A stretch of DNA of 64,000 nucleotides. Origin: Parabacteroides faecis. GTDB taxonomy: Bacteria; Bacteroidota; Bacteroidia; Bacteroidales; Tannerellaceae. The translations under genes were made by a program, and so were the position numbers. How positions within the stretch are numbered: position 1 is the first letter of the stretch; each line of letters opens with the position of its first letter. Shown piece by piece: positions 54,406-64,000 of the stretch. The notes under the pieces are model-generated. The model was not told where the DNA came from. It ran no database searches and saw only the letters and a program-made list of their open reading frames with translations. The stretch covers positions 347,620 through 411,619 of the forward strand of contig NZ_BMPB01000007.1 of assembly GCF_014647375.1 (NCBI RefSeq). The letters are read 5' to 3'.

Positions 54406-55306
54406 TAGGTGTGACCATTTTAGAAAGTAAATAGGTAATCTGCGAGATTTCCTGTTTGACCTCTGGAAAGAGGTGCAAACCATTATTAAGTAATTTATAA
54501 TTAAGTAATAAACAAGGTGGTGCAAAAAATAACCCGACCACATGCAAAAAGTAAACCGGCATTTATTTTTGATTTAGGTTAGTATTATCTTTATTAATTG
54601 GAATCAGAATGTTCAGTTCTATCAATTTTGCGTATTGAGGATTGTTTATTCTCAATACTTTCTTACATTCTAATCTATTACTGAAAATTCGGTTGGTAGG
54701 TGTGTATAATACCATATTTTAGAAATTGGATTTAGAGAAGGACAATTCAAGTTTTCACATTAAAACCAAACACTGTCCTCTGATTTTGGAAAAATAAGTA
54801 ATCTGGATAATGATAAAAGGTAAAACCGGTATCTATTTTATTGATATACACAAAGATACTGAAATATAGAGAGCTAACAAAATAAACTGTCACTAATTGA
54901 AAAATAAGTCTTTAGACATATATACATTTAAAATATACCATCTTAATTTATCCCCCCTCCCCATAAGAGAAGGAAGTCTTTTTCTTCTTAGATGTTGTTG
55001 GCTGGAAATAAGTCTTACATAATAATATATGTATGCTATACACACATGACTTCACTACTTCTAAAGTCCCCATACGGTAGTTGAAGTGAAAGTGAATATT
55101 TTGCTTGTTTTCCTACTGGATAATTCAGACGGGATTCAGAGTTCAAACGGGTGTAACCTGTATTTGGCTGGAATAGAATATATTTAACAGAACGAATTTA
55201 CAACCAGTTAGAACAGAAATTGGATTCAATCCTTTATCTGGAGATATTCCTTTCACTTCCCAAAATTCATAATTAACAATCAAACAACTTATTAAACAAC
55301 AAACGT
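54406..55306. other. Long AT-rich spacer, possible origin or control region
   Basis: A 901-nt gap with no convincing gene. An overlapping minus-strand frame (54356-54562) reads like a short helical peptide (FPEVKQEISQITYLLSKMV) but is not supported. Around 55063-55107 is a stretch, CTAAAGTCCCCATACGGTAG and on, that resembles a segment near the right end of the island at 63819-63865. Confidence 0.4.
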
Positions 55307-55765
55307 ATGGAAGGGATATTGAAAGTATGTGATGTTAAATTAACGTACAATACAAAGGTTAAGAGTTCAGAAAGACCTGTTATAGTACAAGCAGCAGATG
55401 TATATAAACTTTTAATAGATTATGTATATGATAAGGACATAATCCAGTATAAGGAATGTTTAAAACTAATCCTACTGAATAATGCTGGTAAACTTTTGGG
55501 TGTTGCTCATATTTCAGAAGGTGGAACAAATGAAACATCTGCTGATATACGAATAATTATGCAAGCAGCGATATTAGGAAATGCTTCCAGTATAATTTTA
55601 GCACATAATCACCCTAGTGGAAGTTTAAAACCTAGTGCACAGGATGATTTAGTGACTACGAATCTTAGAAAAGCAGCCAAACTATTTAATATTACTTTAC
55701 TGGATCATATAATAGTGACAGATAGCGGATATTATTCTTATTTGGATGAAGGGAGGGTATTATGA
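55307..55765 (+). CDS. RadC/JAB-domain protein of mobile-element type
   Basis: A 152-residue JAMM/MPN+ protein lacking the helix-hairpin-helix domain of chromosomal RadC, i.e. the short form common on plasmids, phages and conjugative elements in Bacteroidales. The metal-binding motif is intact: AHNHPSGSLKPSAQDD supplies His-x-His and Asp, with ECLKLILLNNAG and ISEGGTN upstream. The biochemical role is unknown. A small membrane peptide gene overlaps its stop (ATGA), and a tyrosine recombinase follows. Confidence 0.9.
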   Translation: MEGILKVCDVKLTYNTKVKSSERPVIVQAADVYKLLIDYVYDKDIIQYKECLKLILLNNAGKLLGVAHISEGGTNETSADIRIIMQAAILGNASSIILAHNHPSGSLKPSAQDDLVTTNLRKAAKLFNITLLDHIIVTDSGYYSYLDEGRVL

Positions 55766-55902
55766 AAGCTATTTTATTTATTACCTTCTTGATCTTTATG
55801 TTTGTCTATCCAGAATTATTTTTAGGATTGATTGCTCTTTACATGCTATTATTCTTAATTGTGTTTTTCTTCTTTGAAGTAAAAAACAAATTGGGGAAAT
55901 AA
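55762..55902 (+). CDS. Small hydrophobic peptide (46 residues)
   Basis: The ATG overlaps the RadC stop codon (ATGA), which implies translational coupling. The product MKAILFITFLIFMFVYPELF and on is two hydrophobic segments joined at Pro17-Glu18, ending in a basic tail (EVKNKLGK), so it should be a small membrane protein. No function is recognised. Confidence 0.5.
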   Translation: MKAILFITFLIFMFVYPELFLGLIALYMLLFLIVFFFFEVKNKLGK

Positions 55903-56032
55903 TCTGAATTAGAAACATTCACTAATGCTAGAAGTGAATGTTTCTCTTATTATCAGCCAGTTACGTTTTAGCCATTTTTTCAGATGGCAGAAAACAATCA
56001 CTTTTATACATAATCAATTAAAACTGAATATT

Positions 56033-56620
56033 ATGAGTTTAAAATATAGTACGACTACAGCGGATTATATGCAATGGGATGAAATGACAAATCTGGTTAG
56101 GCGATTGAGTAAAGATGGAAATTATAAGATGTCTTTACTTATTGCCGTTGGTTGTTTCTGGGGATTAAGAATCTCTGATATTTTATCATTACGCTGGGAT
56201 ACGATCCTTTATGTGGATGAGTTTACCATATTAGAGAAGAAAACAGGTAAGATGAGAACCATTCGTATTAACCCTCAACTGAAGAAACACATTGCAGAAT
56301 GTTACAAACAGATACAGCCTGTTAGTGTCAAGTCCCCTATTCTGGTAAGTCAGAAAGGAACAACCTTCTCTATACAGCGGATAAATGTACTGTTGAAAGA
56401 GATTAAAGCCAGATACAAGGTGAAAGTAAAGAATTTCAGTTGTCATTCTCTTAGAAAGACATTTGGAAGACAGGTTTATAATCAAAATTCAGAGAATGCA
56501 GAATTGGCATTAGTTAAATTGATGGAGTTATTTAATCATTCCAGTGTGTCAATCACTAAAAGGTATCTAGGACTAAGACAGGAAGAAATATTAGAAACTT
56601 ACGATTCTCTCTCGTTTTAG
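56033..56620 (+). CDS. Compact tyrosine recombinase/integrase
   Basis: A 195-residue tyrosine recombinase catalytic domain without the usual N-terminal DNA-binding domain. The catalytic set is visible: Arg in GCFWGLRISDIL, a Lys in EKKTGKMRTI, HSLRKTFG (His-x-x-Arg), the second His in LFNHSSVSITKRYLGL, and its Tyr as nucleophile. The ATG at 56033 (MSLKYSTTTADYMQWDEM) is chosen; the open frame extends 36 codons upstream into low-quality sequence. It is the likely mover of the island or an inverter of local DNA. Attachment sites were not found. Confidence 0.85.
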   Translation: MSLKYSTTTADYMQWDEMTNLVRRLSKDGNYKMSLLIAVGCFWGLRISDILSLRWDTILYVDEFTILEKKTGKMRTIRINPQLKKHIAECYKQIQPVSVKSPILVSQKGTTFSIQRINVLLKEIKARYKVKVKNFSCHSLRKTFGRQVYNQNSENAELALVKLMELFNHSSVSITKRYLGLRQEEILETYDSLSF

Positions 56621-56632
56621 ATGGAGATATAT

Positions 56633-56664
56633 TATTGACAATATAAACGCTTTTCGTAACTTTG
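56633..56664 (+). promoter_or_regulatory. Promoter behind the recombinase gene
   Basis: ATTG (56633-56636), 20-nt spacer and TAACTTTG (56657-56664). It would start a transcript near 56671 that contains no reading frame before the terminator at 56931-56936. Confidence 0.5.
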
Positions 56665-56670
56665 TACCAA

Positions 56671-56936
56671 TTCCTTATACTCATAGTGTTGAGCCTCTAG
56701 GGAAGGACATAATTCACGAAAGGTGTTATTGATATTATCTTCTATTATCAAATCTCGCAAATTTGTATAATTGGAATGAAGATGATAGCAATAGCACCCG
56801 CATCATTTGATATATATTTACCTGTGAAGGGGAAACTATATCCTATTGGTGTGGGTTGCTGTTGCTTTATCCATTCCAAAGGCAATGCGAGAGCCTGATA
56901 ATAGGATAAAGTAAATAGTGTTCCCACACCTTTTTT
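56671..56936 (+). ncRNA. Candidate structured non-coding RNA with intrinsic terminator
   Basis: The roughly 265-nt region between the recombinase and the first cargo gene has a promoter, no open frame, and a nested fold at its end. GGTGTGGG (56848-56855) pairs with CCCACACC (56923-56930); inside it CTTTATCC (56865-56872) pairs with GGATAAAG (56904-56911); inside that GGC (56881-56883) pairs with GCC (56893-56895). Six T residues follow. A 5' hairpin GATGAT...ATCATT (about 56783-56810) is also possible. It could be a stand-alone RNA or a long regulatory leader of the downstream gene. Confidence 0.45.
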
Positions 56937-56949
56937 ATTATTTCACATT

Positions 56950-56964
56950 CCGTAGGGAAACAGG
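56950..56964 (+). promoter_or_regulatory. Shared 5' element CCGTAGGGAAACAGG, copy 1
   Basis: A 15-nt sequence ending 19 nt before the ATG at 56984; an identical copy sits 18 nt before the next cargo gene (57569-57583). Probably a common operator or leader element. Confidence 0.5.
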
Positions 56965-56983
56965 AATATAAAACATTTTTATT

Positions 56984-57469
56984 ATGTCAAGTAGATGTAA
57001 AGGATATTTAATAGGTTCAATATCCATTTTATTATCAACAGTTTGCACACCTCTAAAGTCTCAGAATGATTTTTGTGGTTCAAATAATATTATTGCACAA
57101 TCATCAACTCTCCAAAAATTAACTAGAGGAAAAGGTCAGTTATTTAGATATATCTATAAAGGAGAAGAAGGAGCACCATTATCAACATTCAAATTATTTA
57201 ATAACGAAAGTGCTATTATACTTGTATGTGATAACTCTCTATACGAAGAATATTATATTGAATGTACATTTTTAGGACAAACAGATCGATATAATATAAC
57301 TGACACACGAACAGTCTTGAAAGAAGGAGAAAGATTCATAATCTATGAAGCTATTAATGAAGCGAACCAACATGTAACCTTTTTTGGTGATCCAGAATTT
57401 AAAAAGGTAGTTGCAATGACTTTTCAAGGTGTTCAAGTTCTATTTACCAATAATCCTAAATTACAATAG
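56984..57469 (+). CDS. Hypothetical exported protein
   Basis: A 161-residue protein with a plausible signal peptide (residues 1-26, basic start MSSRCKGYLIG then hydrophobic). The mature part begins near QNDFCGSNN and is predicted to be mainly beta strands; two more cysteines (LVCDNS, IECTFLG) could pair. No domain is recognised. It is the first gene of the cargo run and carries the shared 15-nt element in its leader. Its transcript should end at the hairpin at 57513-57548. Confidence 0.6.
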   Translation: MSSRCKGYLIGSISILLSTVCTPLKSQNDFCGSNNIIAQSSTLQKLTRGKGQLFRYIYKGEEGAPLSTFKLFNNESAIILVCDNSLYEEYYIECTFLGQTDRYNITDTRTVLKEGERFIIYEAINEANQHVTFFGDPEFKKVVAMTFQGVQVLFTNNPKLQ

Positions 57470-57512
57470 TAATATTATTTACTTGAAAATCAACAACAAA
57501 TACTATTAAAAG

Positions 57513-57548
57513 AAAATGCGCAACGCTTGTTGCCTGTTCCTGCATTTT
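57513..57548 (+). terminator. Composite hairpin after the first cargo gene
   Basis: AAAATGC (57513-57519) pairs with GCATTTT (57542-57548), enclosing a tight GCAAC-gctt-GTTGC hairpin (57520-57533). Confidence 0.5.
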
Positions 57549-57568
57549 CAGTTCTATTTTAATGCTTA

Positions 57569-57583
57569 CCGTAGGGAAACAGG
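57569..57583 (+). promoter_or_regulatory. Shared 5' element CCGTAGGGAAACAGG, copy 2
   Basis: Identical to 56950-56964 and placed 18 nt before the ATG at 57602. It is flanked by a direct repeat AGTTCTATTTTA (57550-57561 and 57587-57598). Confidence 0.5.
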
Positions 57584-57601
57584 GATAGTTCTATTTTACA
57601 T

Positions 57602-58117
57602 ATGAAACTTATAAATTATACATTCTTTATTATTCTAATTGCAATTAGTATGTCGTGTTCTTCATTAAAAAGCACTTTTGGACTTACTCAACATGATCGT
57701 GTTTATCCACTATATCAAACTTGCCTTTTAAAAAATGGACTTTGGGGAGATTGGGAACGACATTTTTCATATTTCAGTGTACAAACAGAGTATAATAAAG
57801 TTGGACTAAACATATATCTCTATGCGAAGGGTGAACATCCTTCTAATTATATGATAAAGATAATGATAGACAAATATTCAAGAAGTAATGAAGGATATGG
57901 TTTATACTCTTCCTATCAAGGAGAGGTTATTGTCAGTGAAACAAATATTCTTGATTACACAGAAATTAATGATAAGGGTAGACACAAATGTACTATCTTA
58001 TGTGATAAAGATATGGATAAAGCTATACAAAAAAATGGTTTAGTAGGAACTCTCAATATACTATATGGTAATGGATTTGGAAGAGGATTTAATTTTTGGG
58101 ATGATAGTAATTATTAA
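57602..58117 (+). CDS. Hypothetical lipoprotein
   Basis: A 171-residue lipoprotein: signal peptide with lipobox ISMSC (Cys19). The mature part has aromatic-rich beta-like segments (WERHFSYFSVQTEYNK, YGLYSSYQGEVIV) and ends NFWDDSNY. It matches no family I recognise. The next gene starts 10 nt after its stop, and the run continues on the same strand, so it belongs to an operon of surface proteins. Confidence 0.6.
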   Translation: MKLINYTFFIILIAISMSCSSLKSTFGLTQHDRVYPLYQTCLLKNGLWGDWERHFSYFSVQTEYNKVGLNIYLYAKGEHPSNYMIKIMIDKYSRSNEGYGLYSSYQGEVIVSETNILDYTEINDKGRHKCTILCDKDMDKAIQKNGLVGTLNILYGNGFGRGFNFWDDSNY

Positions 58118-58127
58118 ATATTAAATT

Positions 58128-58535
58128 ATGAAACAATTGATTTTATTATTTTTCTTTATTGTACAATCCATAAACGGATATGCACAATACACAGGTAGTG
58201 GAGCAGGGATTGAACCTATAGATCCCAATGAATGGGGCGATGAAAATTTCAGTTATTGTTATTTCATAGAAAGTAAAAATAGCTATGTCTTGTATGATAC
58301 TGATATTACAATATCAGCTAATCAACACGAAATAAAAATGACTTTGAAAAAAAAGAATTACCATTTTAGAATAAAAGAAATAATAGACTGTGATGATTTC
58401 GCTCTAATACACACATCTAATAAAGAAATATGGCTGAAAGCATATAATTATACTGATGAAAATGGGAAATACAATGACGATGTAATATTTTTTATCAATG
58501 GAGTTACATATATAATAACTAATACAAAAAAATAA
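58128..58535 (+). CDS. Hypothetical exported protein
   Basis: A 135-residue protein with a clear signal peptide (residues 1-19, ending NGYAQ). The mature domain is small, acidic and rich in Tyr/Ile (ENFSYCYFIESKNSYVLYD), probably all-beta. It lies between a lipoprotein gene and a small membrane-protein gene. No family is recognised. Confidence 0.55.
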   Translation: MKQLILLFFFIVQSINGYAQYTGSGAGIEPIDPNEWGDENFSYCYFIESKNSYVLYDTDITISANQHEIKMTLKKKNYHFRIKEIIDCDDFALIHTSNKEIWLKAYNYTDENGKYNDDVIFFINGVTYIITNTKK

Positions 58536-58562
58536 TACATAGATTTCAAATTGTAGAATATT

Positions 58563-58754
58563 ATGATAGTATATAATTCTAAAACAGGAAAAAGCAAAAG
58601 TGTTGTAAATTGGAAAGCAATTAAATTTATTTGGGTTTTCTTCCTCATTGTGGTTATAATCCCTAGTTTATTTCCAGAAGCGAGTAAAAAAATTGCAATG
58701 TTCTTTTTAAATATAATTGCTTCTATTTTAGGATTAGAGTTACAAAATGAATAA
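58563..58754 (+). CDS. Small membrane protein
   Basis: A 63-residue protein with a basic cytoplasmic start (NSKTGKSKSVVNWKAIK), one long membrane segment (FIWVFFLIVVIIPSLF) and a second amphipathic or membrane segment near the end. Its last 8 nt overlap the next gene. Unknown function; coupling suggests it works with the dead transpeptidase-like lipoprotein. Confidence 0.5.
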   Translation: MIVYNSKTGKSKSVVNWKAIKFIWVFFLIVVIIPSLFPEASKKIAMFFLNIIASILGLELQNE

Positions 58755-59679
58755 TTTAATATATAGTATGAGAAAATACTTATTTTATGTAATAATTATT
58801 TGGATTTGTATTTCTTGTATAAGACATCATGACTTTCAAGCTGTATCTCAAGAAGCTCTATTAAATGAACTGATAGAAGTACAGGCAGATTCTGGGTTAA
58901 TAATGATTATCAATCAGACAGGGGAAATTATAACACAAAGTTCCCTTGTCTTATCTGGTGATACATATAAAGATGGAGATACCAATGTGTTTAATCAACC
59001 TAGATATATTGGTGGATTGATTTATCCTTTTCCTATGATGATTGCTTTAAAGGACAAAGTACTTATTCCCTCTGACACTGTAGATGTTGGAAACGGTGCT
59101 TATATCTACAAAGGTGCAAGAATGACGGATCACAATTATAATAATGGTGGATATGGAGTATTGACAGCTAGACAGGTATTTGGATATGGTTCTAATATTG
59201 GTATGGCTAAATTGATATTGAAAGGATATGAGGATCAGCAAATGAAATTTGTTTCTTCCATGATTGACCTGGGATTTAAGATTGATACAACTAATTGGAG
59301 TACTACCTCTTTACCCTGGCTTACTATTGGATATGAAACTATGATTTCCCCTGTAGACCTAATTCACTTATATGGAGATATTGCCAATAATAGAATAAAG
59401 GGTTATGAGAATGTTATTCCAGATATTCAGAATATGATGAGATTCTGTGTCGAAGAAGGTACAGGAAAGAATGTTGATTCTGATTATATGGAGATTGCAG
59501 GTAAAACAAGTACCATAATTACAAGTAAAGAGCAAGAAGTATCTTTCTGTGGTTACTTTTCCATTGATAATTCTATATATACTTGCTTGGTCATTATATC
59601 TAATCCTAAAAATGGTTATCCGTCTGGTGGGATAATGGCTGGGAATGTGATTAAAGAGATTACCCAATATATATATTAA
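58747..59679 (+). CDS. FtsI-like transpeptidase-domain lipoprotein with lost catalytic residues
   Basis: A 310-residue protein equal to the C-terminal half of an FtsI/PBP2-type transpeptidase, attached by a lipobox at Cys24 (ICISC). Alignment by eye to Bacteroidales FtsI uses MMIALKDKVLIPSDTVDVG, ARQVFGYGSNIGMAKLI, PWLTIGYETMISPVDLIHLYG and SFCGYFSIDNSIYTC. All three active-site motifs are altered: the Ser-x-x-Lys position reads GLIY (90-93), S-x-N reads GSN (148-150) and K-T-G reads KTS (253-255). It should therefore not cross-link peptidoglycan, but may bind stem peptides, beta-lactams or a partner. The start could also be the ATG at 58768. It overlaps both neighbours. Confidence 0.75.
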   Translation: MNNLIYSMRKYLFYVIIIWICISCIRHHDFQAVSQEALLNELIEVQADSGLIMIINQTGEIITQSSLVLSGDTYKDGDTNVFNQPRYIGGLIYPFPMMIALKDKVLIPSDTVDVGNGAYIYKGARMTDHNYNNGGYGVLTARQVFGYGSNIGMAKLILKGYEDQQMKFVSSMIDLGFKIDTTNWSTTSLPWLTIGYETMISPVDLIHLYGDIANNRIKGYENVIPDIQNMMRFCVEEGTGKNVDSDYMEIAGKTSTIITSKEQEVSFCGYFSIDNSIYTCLVIISNPKNGYPSGGIMAGNVIKEITQYIY

Positions 59680-61079
59680 TGATTATGCTAAATAGATTCA
59701 AACATTTATTTGGAAATAAAAAAAATAAGGAATTTGGAATAAACAATATTACTCCAATAGAAGAAAAACAGATTGTTCCCAAAGAACAGGTTGATTTGAT
59801 CCGCTTTTTTAGAAATGAACTACCAGATAATAAAAATCGCTATCACAAAGATATTTTACAATTTAATCATGAACAGATAGAATATTATCACGATTTTATA
59901 CAATGGATTCTACCTACTATCGACAAAAGCCAGTTTCACCCAGAAGCACCGACCATTGATGATCACTTTAAAGAACAATTGCAGCAAGACGATTTGGCTA
60001 AGTCAAACTATTGTAGAACCTGTCAATTATATTTGAATTATGTTGGATTCCATTGTAACAAAAGACAGATTCAATGTCAGATTACAGGACGACTTTACGA
60101 ATTGCCATATCACAATCAATTAAGGATTACCCGTATGCTAAATTCTCTCAATCAAGTGGGAAATAATCAATGCTCAACCAAACTATACCATGCTATCATG
60201 AGTGAGATCAAGCCAGATTCTGACAAAATTGATAACAATACATTAGACTATTGGGCAAAAACGCAAAGGATAAATATAAACTGTAATATTCTTATAGGAG
60301 CGATTGCTGGGGATATAATAGGTTCAATTTATGAGTTTAACCCTATAAAATCAATAGACTTCCCTCTATTCAAGAAATATTCCAGATTTACAGATGATAC
60401 TGTAATGACTGTTGCCAATGCTAATTGGTTATTGACTAACAATATCCTGTCTGATATTATGTTAGACTATGGTAATCGTTATCCAAATGCAGGATATGGA
60501 GGTTCTTTTTATAATTGGTTACAACAAGATATTCCAGAACCTTATAATAGTTTTGGAAATGGTTCTGCAATGCGTGTTAGTCCTGTTGGATGGGCGTTTG
60601 AAACATTGGAAGAAACTTTGAAAAAGGCTAAAGAAAGCGCAGAAGTTACCCATAACCACCCTGAGGGAATTAAAGGAGCGCAGGCTACAGCAGCATGTAT
60701 CTATCTGGCACGTACAGGTAAATCAAAGCTGGAAATTAAGGAATATATTGAATCTACTTTTGGCTATAATCTTAATCGAACCTGTGATAAAATACGAATT
60801 GCTTATCAATTCGATGTCACCTGTCAAGGTTCTGTTCCTGAATCCATCATCGCTTTTTTGGAAAGTAAGGATTTTGAACATGCTATTCGTTTGGCTATTT
60901 CTTTAGGGGGAGATGCTGATACAATGGGTGCTATTACTGGAAGTATTGCAGAAGCCTATTACAAAGAAGTTCCAGAGGAAATAAAGAAAGAAGTGCTTAA
61001 GAGATTGCCAAAAGAGTTTATAGATGTGATGGAAAGGTTTTATAAGAAGTTTATAATGAAAAATAAGTCAATTGACTAA
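59679..61079 (+). CDS. OGFr-like domain fused to ADP-ribosylglycohydrolase
   Basis: A 466-residue cytoplasmic protein. Residues about 40-195 resemble the conserved region of opioid growth factor receptor-related proteins (RFFRNELPDNKNRYHKDIL, then YYHDFIQWILPTIDKSQFHP), a family also present in bacteria with unknown role. Residues 203-455 form a DraG/ARH-type ADP-ribosylglycohydrolase: IGAIAGDIIGSIYEF, the metal-binding FTDDTVMT (237-244), GNGSAMRVSPVGW, and GGDADTMGAITGSIAEA near the end. The acidic metal ligands are intact, so it should remove ADP-ribose from protein, nucleic acid or a small molecule. The ATG overlaps the previous stop by one nt, so both are translated together. Confidence 0.8.
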   Translation: MIMLNRFKHLFGNKKNKEFGINNITPIEEKQIVPKEQVDLIRFFRNELPDNKNRYHKDILQFNHEQIEYYHDFIQWILPTIDKSQFHPEAPTIDDHFKEQLQQDDLAKSNYCRTCQLYLNYVGFHCNKRQIQCQITGRLYELPYHNQLRITRMLNSLNQVGNNQCSTKLYHAIMSEIKPDSDKIDNNTLDYWAKTQRININCNILIGAIAGDIIGSIYEFNPIKSIDFPLFKKYSRFTDDTVMTVANANWLLTNNILSDIMLDYGNRYPNAGYGGSFYNWLQQDIPEPYNSFGNGSAMRVSPVGWAFETLEETLKKAKESAEVTHNHPEGIKGAQATAACIYLARTGKSKLEIKEYIESTFGYNLNRTCDKIRIAYQFDVTCQGSVPESIIAFLESKDFEHAIRLAISLGGDADTMGAITGSIAEAYYKEVPEEIKKEVLKRLPKEFIDVMERFYKKFIMKNKSID

Positions 61080-61132
61080 CTTGGAGTAAAATTAAAAAGA
61101 GAATGAGTTATATGATTGAAATTTCCAGAGTG

Positions 61133-61185
61133 AGTACTTTTTTTGATAGATAACGTTTTTATAGTCCCTGTTCAAAAAAGGTACT
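61133..61185. other. Imperfect inverted repeat in the spacer before the lipoprotein pair
   Basis: AGTACTTTTTTTGA (61133-61146) and TCAAAAAAGGTACT (61172-61185) pair with one mismatch. With the T-run in the first arm it may end the OGFr-ARH transcript, or act in the control of the next gene, whose ATG at 61250 has an unusually clear ribosome site (AGGGAGGAA, 61233-61241). Confidence 0.45.
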
Positions 61186-61249
61186 ATCAATGAAGTTAGA
61201 AAGATTAGGATTACTTGAAGTCTGAATATTAGTAGGGAGGAATAAGAAG

Positions 61250-62842
61250 ATGAAGTATTTAATGATTCTATTAAGTTTTTGTTTGATGGCTTGCAATGGG
61301 CGATCTGTTAAACAAGAAGAAAAAACAGATTCCAATATGACGGAAGAAAGTATTGAAATTCCAAATGGCTCACTAACGAAGGGAGAACAAGATTCTTTGA
61401 TAACGGTATTGTCTCCTTATCTGGAAGTCGATACAGCTTTTACTAAAAGAAGGATTGAAATATCTGGGTCTCTTTCTAAGATAATAGATGGAGCAATAGA
61501 TATTGATGAGGATTATACATGGCAAATTATAGCTCACGTGGATTCAGTTATCAAGCAATGTATAAATCATGTTCAATCAAATGAGCCTAAGCAGCTATTT
61601 GATTTATTTGATAAGGAGAAAAAAAATATTTATGCACATCCATCAAACACATGGAAAAATGAACAAAATTTGAATAATATGATATTGTCTTTGTATGAGA
61701 AGTATGATCGTTCTTCAAATAAAAGATTGCTTGCAGAGAAAGTGATAGAGTTATATGAAATTTCTTTCATACACATAAAGTTATTAGAAACATTTGGAGG
61801 TTATTCTCATCCTAGTTTTATACCACTTGCAAAATCCTTGAGAGAATGGTATTTGGTAATATTGAAGAATTATGATAAAGCAATTGAGTTACAAAGACAA
61901 ATTTGCGAACGAATCGAAAAAGAAGAGACAGAAGGAAGGGCAAGCGAGAATTACGGATTTGAGTTGATGAAGTTATCTGAATTATATTTAGCAAATAACG
62001 ATACGATTCGTATGGATTCATGTCACCAGATATTACAAAAGAATCCTTATATAGAAAAAATCTTACAAGAATATAATGAATATAAGAAAACTACACAAGA
62101 AGATAAACAAAAGGTCGATATTTCACAAGAATTTGAAAGTCTAAATTGTCCTCGTGTATATATCAAATATAAACAACCTATAAACGGATATACAGTTAAA
62201 GTATTATGGTTACCTTTTACAGATAAAAGTGGATATACTGCTGAAACAGGAAATGCAGTTCTACATTTTGAGAGTGAAAACAATCACTTTTATATCCAAA
62301 CCCAAAGTTATAGAGATACAGCTGTTTATTCACATACTCATTTAAAAGATGGGGATGTTCTATTTTGGAATTATACACCTAAGAAGAAAGGTGAAATTCT
62401 TTCTAAATATTCACCCTTCTTTTTTTCAGATGTAAACTTTGACGGAGAAAATGAACTTTTAATTAATTGCTATAATGGAGGTTCTAAAGGCTCTAATACT
62501 TATGAGGTTTATAAAATTCATCCTTATTATGCTGAGATTATAAAAGATGCACCTTTTGCCAGTTTAGAGAATGATATGACTGACTTTGACCTTACAAATA
62601 AAACAATTACATGTCATTACCCACTAAGTTCTTTTGAATCTATTACACATATTTATAAACAAGTCAAACAAGAAAGAATGAATTTTGGAGAACTTGAAAC
62701 AGACTATAAATTTGAATTAGTCAAAGTGGATATTCATAATCAATATACAGATAGTAAAGAGCACAAAGTATATATAAAAGATGGATATAATTACAAATTA
62801 GTAAAGGATGACAAAGCATCTGTTAATCAGAAAGATAAATAA
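61250..62842 (+). CDS. Lipoprotein with helical repeat region and DxNFDG domain
   Basis: A 530-residue lipoprotein (lipobox LMAC, Cys15). Residues 70-275 are helical with TPR-like spacing (NYDKAIELQRQICERIEKE, ELMKLSELYLANND). Residues about 295-520 form a beta-rich domain starting VYIKYKQPINGY and containing a calcium-site-like loop DVNFDGENELLI. The same domain makes up the next protein. It resembles XAC2610-type proteins, periplasmic lysozyme inhibitors and immunity factors with a DxNxDG loop, but the match is by motif only. The clear ribosome site and spacer suggest a separate transcript from the upstream genes. Confidence 0.55.
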   Translation: MKYLMILLSFCLMACNGRSVKQEEKTDSNMTEESIEIPNGSLTKGEQDSLITVLSPYLEVDTAFTKRRIEISGSLSKIIDGAIDIDEDYTWQIIAHVDSVIKQCINHVQSNEPKQLFDLFDKEKKNIYAHPSNTWKNEQNLNNMILSLYEKYDRSSNKRLLAEKVIELYEISFIHIKLLETFGGYSHPSFIPLAKSLREWYLVILKNYDKAIELQRQICERIEKEETEGRASENYGFELMKLSELYLANNDTIRMDSCHQILQKNPYIEKILQEYNEYKKTTQEDKQKVDISQEFESLNCPRVYIKYKQPINGYTVKVLWLPFTDKSGYTAETGNAVLHFESENNHFYIQTQSYRDTAVYSHTHLKDGDVLFWNYTPKKKGEILSKYSPFFFSDVNFDGENELLINCYNGGSKGSNTYEVYKIHPYYAEIIKDAPFASLENDMTDFDLTNKTITCHYPLSSFESITHIYKQVKQERMNFGELETDYKFELVKVDIHNQYTDSKEHKVYIKDGYNYKLVKDDKASVNQKDK

Positions 62843-62853
62843 AATTATAGATA

Positions 62854-63792
62854 ATGAAATACAATATTTATTTACTAGGTTTATTACTATTGAGTTGTAA
62901 TAATACACCTTTACAAACATCTGTTACAACACATGTATCTGATGATGTTAAACAGGCTAAAACGGTATATGTTAATTACAAACAAACTATTAAAGGTTAT
63001 AGATTCTATCTTGAATACGAACTTATGGATAGTGAACCTCTATGGGGTAATCTTATTATCGAATCTCCTAATAAAAGAATAGATACTTGCTCAGTACATT
63101 GTTATATGAGTGATTTTTATTTTGATACAGGTATAGAATGGGATTCTTTACAAGATAATGAAACGATAACGGTTGATTATTACAAAATTTATAACAGTAT
63201 TTCTACAGAAAAAGAAGATTGTTTTCCAAACTATATAGAAGATCCATTTGAACACTCAAAATTATTTGGATTTTATGATGCTAATTTTGATGGTAAAGAT
63301 GAGCTTTTTATAAGGTGGAACTCATGGTTAGGACAAAAAAGTCGAGCGTTATATTCTTTCTACACATGTTCAGAAATGAAACCTATATTGGAGGATTATC
63401 AAATAGATAGTGGTTGGCTGTTTGATAAATTGAACAAAAGGATAATCAGCGATTTAACTTGTGGAATAGGATGTCAGACTTATTCTATTTGGGAATGGAA
63501 TGAAAACAAGGATAGTTTGATACATGTAAAAGATATGAAAGAGATAGGATTTCCAGATTCTGTACACATAGCCACTAAACATATCTTTTATAAAGATACT
63601 AATATAGTACTGATAGATACTGTAATAGTCGATTTATTAAAAGGTTCTTATTTTGACCAAAATATACTATATCATGGATTAAAAAACATTAAATCAAATA
63701 ACAGTTTGTCTGAATCTACTCCTAAACTTAGTTTTGTAGATCGTATATTACAATGGTTTGAATGTCTTATTGATGATATAACAAGAGAATAA
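62854..63792 (+). CDS. Lipoprotein with DxNFDG domain (XAC2610-like)
   Basis: A 312-residue lipoprotein (lipobox LLSC, Cys15) that is a shorter relative of the preceding protein. It keeps VYVNYKQTIKGYRFYLEY, parallel to VYIKYKQPINGYTVKVLW upstream, and the loop DANFDGKDELFI with all acidic positions, but lacks the helical repeats. Six cysteines (e.g. DLTCGIGCQTYS) could form disulfides. It starts 11 nt after its neighbour and ends just before a short hairpin at 63794-63809. The pair is probably a tandem duplication of an envelope immunity or inhibitor gene; this is an inference. Confidence 0.55.
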   Translation: MKYNIYLLGLLLLSCNNTPLQTSVTTHVSDDVKQAKTVYVNYKQTIKGYRFYLEYELMDSEPLWGNLIIESPNKRIDTCSVHCYMSDFYFDTGIEWDSLQDNETITVDYYKIYNSISTEKEDCFPNYIEDPFEHSKLFGFYDANFDGKDELFIRWNSWLGQKSRALYSFYTCSEMKPILEDYQIDSGWLFDKLNKRIISDLTCGIGCQTYSIWEWNENKDSLIHVKDMKEIGFPDSVHIATKHIFYKDTNIVLIDTVIVDLLKGSYFDQNILYHGLKNIKSNNSLSESTPKLSFVDRILQWFECLIDDITRE

Positions 63793-63872
63793 AAGCACCT
63801 AACAGTGCTTGATTTTCCCTAAAGTCCCTATATAGTAGAAAGTATGAATGAATTATTCTTGCAAACAAATCA

Positions 63873-64000
63873 GGGGGCGTAAAATAAACTGTGTCATGCG
63901 CTGTTTTTCTTTCAAGCTCATCGGTCGGGGATCGGCTAGCGCCAAGGGGGTGCACCAGCACTCCCGACGAGCGTAAAATTACAACAACTTAAATCTATCT
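63873..64000. mobile_element. Possible insertion-sequence end, continuing outside the window
   Basis: At 63873 the AT-rich sequence changes abruptly to GC-rich sequence beginning GGGGGCGTAAAATAAACTG, which looks like an IS terminal repeat, followed by a folded GC-rich stretch (GCTCATCGGTCGGG against CCCGACGAGC; GGTGCACC). No transposase can be recognised in the 128 nt present. Confidence 0.3.

What the first reader, a model, noticed from the sequence alone, without database searches (positions are those of the whole stretch)
58747..59679. FtsI-like pseudo-transpeptidase as a mobile lipoprotein
The protein aligns with the transpeptidase half of FtsI, but each active-site motif is changed (SxxK to GLIY, SxN to GSN, KTG to KTS), while the surrounding fold motifs are kept. 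This pattern suggests selection for binding without catalysis: a decoy for beta-lactams, phage or toxins, or a regulator of division.
Basis: partly seen in the sequence, partly recalled or inferred. Interest (0 to 1): 0.75.

Follow-up and report, generated by a model that had tools for sequence, protein, structure and literature searches.

The report
Dead FtsI-like lipoprotein in immunity-gene island
A gut bacterium carries, in a low-GC island of defence-type genes, a catalytically dead copy of part of a cell-division enzyme, and the best guess is that it protects the cell by soaking up a rival's toxin that attacks the real enzyme.

Summary

A tyrosine recombinase with RadC heads a co-directional low-GC array with an ADP-ribosylglycohydrolase and two lipoproteins weakly like the XAC2610 immunity family. 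This meets part of the published definition of recombinase-associated interbacterial defence (rAID). A recombinase-first search found another dead FtsI in such an array. Best reading: an orphan periplasmic immunity protein, perhaps an FtsI decoy. No toxin was recognised and no function tested. Many copies lie away from this recombinase. A beta-lactam decoy is unlikely.

The parts
58747..59679 (+). Pseudo-FtsI: stand-alone, catalytically dead transpeptidase domain with export signal / probable lipobox (Cys24); likely true start at Met8 (58768)
55925..56620 (+). Tyrosine recombinase (PF00589) at the head of the array; several relatives begin at the Met corresponding to about 56033
   Evidence: PF00589 E 7.8e-17; relatives with at least 72% identity head low-GC co-directional runs
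55307..55765 (+). RadC-type JAB protein, found beside the same recombinase in other loci
   Evidence: PF04002 E 3.4e-36; co-occurrence in L065, L071, L088, L089, L090
56950..56964 (+). Repeat CCGTAGGGAAACAGG about 20 bases before the first array gene
   Evidence: Exact copy pair; no exact copy in loci from other genomes
57569..57583 (+). Second copy of the repeat, about 20 bases before the second array gene
56984..57469 (+). Array gene 1, exported by eye, unknown family
57602..58117 (+). Array gene 2, lipoprotein-like; relative two genes before pseudo-FtsI in L065 (40% identity)
58128..58535 (+). Array gene 3, exported by eye, unknown family
59679..61079 (+). ADP-ribosylglycohydrolase with an N-terminal OGFr_N domain; start codon overlaps the pseudo-FtsI stop by one base
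   Evidence: PF03747 E 5.7e-36 and PF04664 E 6.5e-12; NCBIfam Tri1 model E 3.1e-11, below its cut-off; overlap
61250..62842 (+). Lipoprotein with a C-terminal XAC2610-like region
   Evidence: NF047539 E 1.8e-6, 28.4 bits against a cut-off of 35
62854..63792 (+). Lipoprotein with an XAC2610-like region
   Evidence: NF047539 E 1.2e-4, 22.5 bits against a cut-off of 35; fold could not be modelled

Best explanation
The gene is an orphan immunity gene in a recombinase-associated array of interbacterial defence genes (rAID-type). Its product is exported to the periplasm and most likely tethered by a lipid. It keeps the shape of the FtsI transpeptidase domain but should not catalyse. SHOWN by sequence: the dead domain, the family, the constraint, the array and its neighbours. 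INFERRED: that it protects against a toxin delivered by rival Bacteroidales into the periplasm, which binds, cleaves or modifies FtsI; and that it does so as a decoy, binding the toxin in place of the real FtsI. Within this explanation 'immunity protein' is more secure (about 0.5) than 'decoy of FtsI' (about 0.3). The protein could also inhibit a toxin through a new surface, having merely been recruited from FtsI.
For: Array: recombinase, then 7 co-directional ORFs of at least 70 aa up to the contig end, each with GC 0.27-0.34, against 0.454 for bases 1-52000; these meet the direction and GC test quoted in PMC12247911 (passages). A dead FtsI lies downstream of this recombinase in 4 of 10 loci where the recombinase is at least 72% identical (window, L065, L071, L091). 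Two of these four (window, L065) were brought in by the FtsI search; of the 8 such loci that recombinase searches reached besides the query, 2 (L071, L091) hold one, and L091 was reached through the recombinase alone. Neighbours: ADP-ribosylglycohydrolase, as in the enzymatic immunity type Imm-ARG (passage of PMC3482391) and Tri1 (passages); XAC2610-like lipoproteins (passages of PMC10933484). Catalytic Lys lost in 11 of 11. dN/dS 0.28 (95% 0.19-0.38), 0.18 (0.08-0.37) and 0.19 (0.12-0.28) for three pairs. L067 looks like a mosaic of two lineages, as expected of an arms-race gene. The window's genome shows no TssD (T6SS tube) match, as expected of an orphan. A periplasmic T6SS toxin that disturbs division and pulls down PBPs is in print, with periplasmic and lipoprotein immunity partners (passages of PMC6899460).
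Against: I recognised no toxin gene beside any copy, so no cognate pair is known; neighbour genes were read by eye and only some were scanned. The reference rAID recombinase (BF9343_RS08045) could not be compared. Among 48 array proteins, the 12 Pfam families listed include no SUKH or Imm family; of 33 NCBIfam families only 25 were shown, and those show no immunity model besides the Tri1 and XAC2610 ones, which in the window's proteins stay below their cut-offs. The 312-aa lipoprotein could not be modelled (pLDDT 36). Nine of the 13 loci with a copy (L062, L063, L064, L066-L070, L072) have no such recombinase in the stretch fetched; L063, L066, L067 and L072 are cut by contig ends on the upstream side, the other five are not. 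L070 and L072 share chromosomal neighbours and are not in arrays. Only 41 of 122 positions conserved in FtsI are kept by the 8-member clade, which argues against faithful surface mimicry. One pair (L062/L067) gave dN/dS 0.43.
Confidence: 0.48

Rival explanations
1. Regulator of division or of septal wall synthesis: the dead domain competes with FtsI for its partners and slows division, for example when the island or its neighbours are active.
For: Fold complete; export to the periplasm where FtsI works; L070 and L072 are kept beside the same neighbours in two species, which fits a housekeeping or regulatory role better than a mobile immunity role.
Against: The N-terminal part of FtsI (PBP_dimer domain in the host protein), which in published divisome structures holds FtsW and FtsL (recalled), is absent (310 aa). 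Sequence is diverse, with loops deleted in most members of the clade, unlike a conserved partner surface. In the genus it is patchy: 9 of 39 genomes.
Confidence: 0.18
2. Ligand-binding protein: it binds peptidoglycan stem peptides, lipid II or a small molecule without turnover, to shield the wall from a hydrolase toxin or to sense damage.
For: KTG is kept in 7 of 11, and a new DSK motif in place of SxN is shared by 5 of the 8 clade members, so the groove may have a new binding role. XAC2610-like neighbours point to peptidoglycan-directed toxins. A PBP used as a beta-lactam sensor is in print (PMC8092216, search listing only).
Against: Active-site residues vary between members; no signalling partner in the window's array was recognised.
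Confidence: 0.15
3. Beta-lactam decoy: it soaks up beta-lactams to spare FtsI.
For: The fold is that of the drug target.
Against: The Ser that is acylated is Gly here and present in only 2 of 11 members; the Lys that activates it is absent in 11 of 11. Without acylation binding should be weak (established PBP chemistry, recalled).
Confidence: 0.03
4. Decaying passenger copy of FtsI without function.
For: Broken or incomplete copies exist: L064 first copy (split), L069 (truncated), L066 (one stop, contig edge); a 57-nt remnant of a 3' end follows the ARH gene in L065.
Against: 11 open copies; the three bootstrapped dN/dS intervals end below 0.4; the dead state is shared on one side of a 99/92 branch.
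Confidence: 0.08

Closest known systems
FtsI / class B PBP (PBP3), transpeptidase domain
   Same: Whole transpeptidase fold, sequence relationship (44% to the host protein in the best segment), shared stretches such as DHN..GGYG and GYPSGG
   Different: No catalytic Lys, mostly no Ser, shortened loops, no PBP_dimer and no PASTA domain (host protein has both); made as a short exported protein
[quoted passage not shown]
   Same: Tyrosine recombinase followed by a co-directional array of low-GC genes, a repeated intergenic motif, an ADP-ribosylhydrolase-type immunity enzyme
   Different: Homology to the reference rAID recombinase untested; no SUKH gene seen in Pfam; two genes far longer than 300 codons; rich in exported proteins; a term search of PMC12247911 found no 'FtsI', 'penicillin', 'lipoprotein' or 'decoy' in its main text
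XAC2610 / X-Tfi periplasmic immunity lipoproteins
   Same: Lipoproteins of the same array show weak similarity; same place of action
   Different: Pseudo-FtsI itself has another fold; XAC2610 blocks a lysozyme-like effector (passages)
VgrG2bC-ter / PA0261 (Tpe-Tpi) effector-immunity pair
   Same: Toxin acts in the periplasm and disturbs division, with PBPs among the pulled-down proteins; immunity proteins are periplasmic or lipoproteins (passages)
   Different: PA0261 is not described as FtsI-like in the passages read; no such toxin was recognised here
Tri1 (ADP-ribosylhydrolase immunity against FtsZ-modifying Tre1)
   Same: An ARH gene overlaps the pseudo-FtsI stop codon and scores with the Tri1 model below cut-off
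   Different: An enzyme that acts on another division protein; has an OGFr_N-type N-terminal domain here

Membership tests
FtsI (septal transpeptidase) | Transpeptidase domain fold | tested here: met
FtsI (septal transpeptidase) | Catalytic motifs SxxK, SxN, KTG | tested here: not met
   GLIY, GSN, KTS; Lys absent in 11 of 11 open family members, all three motifs intact in 47 of 47 FtsI
FtsI (septal transpeptidase) | N-terminal PBP_dimer (pedestal) part; PASTA domain as in the host protein | tested here: not met
   310 aa with Transpeptidase as the only Pfam match; host protein of 727 aa has PBP_dimer, Transpeptidase and PASTA
rAID system | Homolog of the rAID tyrosine recombinase upstream | tested here: inconclusive
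   A tyrosine recombinase is there (PF00589) and its close relatives head similar runs, but the reference BF9343_RS08045 was not at hand
rAID system | Two or more co-directional genes with GC below 41% | tested here: met
   7 genes, GC 0.27-0.34
rAID system | Short genes, about 100-300 codons | tested here: inconclusive
   161, 171, 135, 310, 466, 530, 312 aa: 3 of 7 within the range, 2 just above, 2 well above
rAID system | Conserved intergenic motifs | tested here: inconclusive
   15-nt motif twice in the window; no exact copy in loci from other genomes
T6SS orphan immunity protein | Homolog encoded beside a cognate effector | tested here: inconclusive
   No effector recognised, mostly by eye, around the 13 loci read; one genome per species only
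T6SS orphan immunity protein | Neutralises an effector | not testable with these tools
   Needs an experiment
Known anti-phage defence proteins (PADLOC) | Match to a PADLOC model | tested here: not met
   At E 0.01 no match for 7 of the 8 window proteins scanned, pseudo-FtsI included; one weak HamA match (E 0.005) for array gene 2

The most novel reading that the evidence does not exclude
The septal transpeptidase FtsI is the direct target of an undiscovered toxin that gut Bacteroidales deliver to rivals, and bacteria have answered by spreading dead FtsI domains as sacrificial decoys in recombinase-linked immunity arrays, with the dead site evolving new residues (DSK) at the toxin interface. 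The pseudo-FtsI would then be bait for finding the toxin.
Probability: 0.28. Interest if true: 0.82.

Novelty: new variant of a known kind. Interest (0 to 1): 0.6.

Why it matters
Known immunity proteins mostly block a toxin's active site (as recalled, and as said in PMC13392607's abstract, search listing); copies of the toxin's own target used as decoys are unusual. If right, this family points to FtsI as a natural target of contact-dependent antagonism in the gut, gives a ready bait for finding that toxin, and marks a new way of reaching the enzyme that beta-lactams inhibit. If the decoy idea is wrong, a recurrent dead FtsI under constraint still needs an explanation.

Tried and rejected
Beta-lactam decoy: rejected as main reading because the residues that are acylated are gone. 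Simple pseudogene: rejected on family-wide loss, dN/dS and tree. Recent duplication of the host's own FtsI: not supported, since all 11 dead proteins fall on one side of a 99/92 branch against 47 FtsI, the host's included; long branches make this less than certain and the root is unknown.

Led nowhere: viral contig scan with the family profile (none confirmed); plasmid and phage collections (7 records, best 35% identity, five of them annotated as a PBP, FtsI or PBP2; 2 weak records; one distant match, to the ARH gene); structure of the 312-aa lipoprotein (pLDDT 36, not used); PDB sequence searches with both lipoproteins (nothing convincing); recombinase in plasmids (one distant Sarcina hit); Bacteroidales-type promoter pattern in 55000-64000 (two hits, both inside genes). 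The genome-contig scan gave one relative, the same locus as L062.

Literature: searches (full text of the held open library; 12 to 20 papers listed each) showed no paper that I recognised as describing an FtsI-like or dead-PBP immunity protein; most subscription papers are not held, and I did not see the original rAID paper in the listings, so this is not proof of absence. Passages only were seen of PMC12247911, PMC3482391, PMC10933484, PMC6899460, PMC10789625 and PMC8262886; PMC8092216 and PMC13392607 only in search listings.

Rows dropped before counts: the motif count and tree use 11 open copies; three broken or edge copies (L064 first copy, L066, L069) were left out. Of 12 pairs tried for dN/dS four saturated; the three pseudo-FtsI pairs bootstrapped were chosen among those that did not, and other NG86 values were 0.06, 0.11 and 0.43. 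Of the 57 run ORFs, 48 were scanned; dropped were three large distal genes of L071, four of L092 and one each of L149 and L151. ORFs with masked letters were skipped. Of the 20 recombinase places, 14 were read; the six weakest (41-45% identity) were not fetched. G357, with two profile matches, was not examined. Of the 10 loci (L146-L153, 50-62% identity) show no run of two or more genes by my rule, though L152 ends soon after the recombinase; L092 (55%) has four.

Full report

THE ACTIVE SITE. On the alignment, 47 of 47 FtsI domains read STFK, SSN and KTGT. Across the 11 open dead proteins the Lys of SxxK is lost in 11 of 11; the Ser is Gly in 2, Thr in 6, Ala in 1 and still Ser in 2 (L070, L072). 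SxN reads DSK in 5, GSN, NSN and DSN once each, SSN twice, SSG once. KTG is kept in 7, KTS in 2, KSG in 1, ETE in 1. The letters vary but the loss of the catalytic Lys does not. In the 8-member clade of the window protein, of 122 columns conserved in at least 90% of FtsI, 41 are kept, 4 switched to another fixed residue, 20 deleted in most and 57 relaxed.

THE FAMILY. Stand-alone short forms occur in 9 of 39 genomes of the genus (G000, G005, G011, G015, G016, G017, G021, G033, G037); in G017 and G033 only a truncated or a stop-bearing contig-edge copy was seen. The genus is Parabacteroides by inference: G021's contig has the same length as the named Parabacteroides sp. record behind L005. Others are G443 in the same family and 3 of the 5 genomes of genus g63 (G203, G296, G364). 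In a draw of 393 genomes of the order, the profile search showed short forms, besides the window's own, only in those three among the rows printed; the list was cut. The maximum-likelihood tree puts the 11 dead proteins on one side of a branch (99/92) with the 47 FtsI on the other, and 8 dead proteins (window, L062, L063, L064, L065, L067, L068, L091) together (95/86). Several dead branches are long and the root is unknown. Pairwise dN/dS (NG86, 300 codon bootstraps) is 0.28 (0.19-0.38) for window/L062, 0.18 (0.08-0.37) for L063/L066 (188 codons) and 0.19 (0.12-0.28) for L067/L068. Other pseudo-FtsI pairs gave 0.06, 0.11 and 0.43 or saturated; two FtsI pairs gave 0.006 and 0.079, a third saturated. 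The dead genes evolve faster than FtsI in most pairs but under constraint; dS is high for distant pairs and those values are rough. L067 is close to L062 at both ends (0.88-0.89 and 0.77-0.86 nucleotide identity per 30-codon window) and distant in the middle (0.43-0.68), which looks like recombination. Three copies are broken, truncated or carry a stop at a contig edge (L064 first copy, L069, L066).

THE SURROUNDINGS. Upstream lie a RadC-type gene and a tyrosine recombinase (55925-56620). Then come seven co-directional ORFs of at least 70 aa up to the contig end, GC 0.27-0.34, against 0.454 for bases 1-52000; a 63-aa ORF lies just before pseudo-FtsI. A 15-nt repeat, CCGTAGGGAAACAGG, stands about 20 bases before the first two array genes (two exact copies; with up to 3 mismatches there are 4 hits in the window against 0.91 expected, and 2 of 100 shuffles reach 4). 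The gene after pseudo-FtsI encodes an ADP-ribosylglycohydrolase (PF03747, E 5.7e-36) whose start overlaps the pseudo-FtsI stop by one base. Its top PDB match is a bacterial ADP-ribosylglycohydrolase (2cwc, tied in E-value with an ARH3 entry), and it matches the NCBIfam Tri1 model below cut-off. The last two genes are lipoproteins with sub-threshold similarity to the XAC2610 family; 4 of 48 array proteins hit that model at E 0.01. XAC2610 is a periplasmic lipobox immunity protein against a peptidoglycan-targeting effector (passage of PMC10933484). ARH-type immunity enzymes are described in PMC3482391, PMC10789625 and PMC8262886.

LINKAGE TO THE RECOMBINASE. Recombinase searches (59 genomes of the family; 393 of the order), together with the pseudo-FtsI loci already held, gave ten loci with at least 72% identity (window, L065, L071, L087-L091, L144, L145). 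Each heads a run of 2 to 9 low-GC co-directional ORFs by my rule; L071's run of 9 reaches large genes that probably lie beyond the array. Four of the ten hold a dead FtsI. The window and L065 came in through FtsI, L071 by both routes, L091 through the recombinase alone. Transpeptidase is the commonest Pfam domain among the 48 array proteins scanned (4 of 48), a count that is biased by this choice of loci. Eight loci with 50-62% identity have no run of two or more; L092, at 55%, has four. Nine of the 13 loci with a copy have no such recombinase in the stretch read: L063, L066, L067 and L072 are cut by contig ends upstream, L062 and L068 keep RadC, and L064, L069 and L070 show neither. L070 and L072 share neighbours that look like MlaE/MlaF genes (read by eye) and are not in such arrays.

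COMPARISON WITH rAID. PMC12247911 (passages) defines rAID by a tyrosine recombinase homolog upstream of at least two co-directional genes under 41% GC, short genes and conserved intergenic motifs. The array meets the direction and GC test; gene length and motif are inconclusive; recombinase homology to the reference could not be tested. No SUKH family is among the Pfam matches of the 48 proteins. I therefore call it rAID-type, not a proven rAID member. TssD was found in 3 of 13 genomes that carry pseudo-FtsI (G011, G017, G037) and not in the window's own, as an orphan gene would predict, though a T6SS is not the only way of delivering toxins.

HOW IT MOST LIKELY WORKS. Shown: dead domain, constraint, export signal by eye, immunity-type neighbours. 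Inferred: protection against a periplasmic toxin aimed at FtsI. PMC6899460 (passages) gives a precedent for a periplasmic effector that disturbs division and pulls down PBPs, with periplasmic or lipoprotein immunity partners. Decoy action is the simplest use of a dead target copy, but the modest retention of FtsI-conserved positions and the loop deletions would also suit a recruited scaffold that binds the toxin by a new surface. The pseudo-FtsI/ARH overlap, together with Tri1 protecting FtsZ, suggests division as a common theme; this is speculation.

VERDICT. Observation confirmed; interpretation partly supported and narrowed. Not recognised under any name in my literature searches, within the limits of an open-access library.

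Noticed in passing
L065:10263-10319: A 57-nt stretch after the ARH gene repeats the 3' end of the pseudo-FtsI gene (88%), a remnant of an earlier copy or a recombination footprint.
   Followed up: partly
L067:8826-9680: Pseudo-FtsI with both ends close to L062 and a divergent centre, as if the centre had been swapped.
   Followed up: partly
L062:8651-9601 (-), L067:7871-8839 (-), L068:9404-9838: A protein family of about 320 aa (145 aa in L068), without Pfam match or NCBIfam match in its L062 member, overlaps the 3' end of pseudo-FtsI in three loci, in the place where the window has the ARH gene.
   Followed up: partly
59679-61079: Fusion of an OGFr_N-type domain to an ADP-ribosylglycohydrolase; relatives lie near other pseudo-FtsI copies (L063, L064 part, L065, L066, L069 part).
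   Followed up: partly
L070:9147-10085, L072:5038-5946: A pseudo-FtsI lipoprotein subgroup that keeps the Ser but lacks the Lys, beside shared chromosomal neighbours in two species of genus g63; may have a separate role.
   Followed up: partly
L062, L064, L068: SIR2-type genes near pseudo-FtsI (PF02146 tested in L062 only; similar starts in L064 and L068).
   Followed up: no
L067:10518-10964 (-): A GYF_2 plus CD225 (interferon-induced transmembrane family) protein three genes upstream of pseudo-FtsI.
   Followed up: no
L068:3738-8394: Kinase-like, von Willebrand-like and phosphatase-like genes just upstream of pseudo-FtsI; the kinase hits PADLOC kinase models, the others were read by eye.
   Followed up: no
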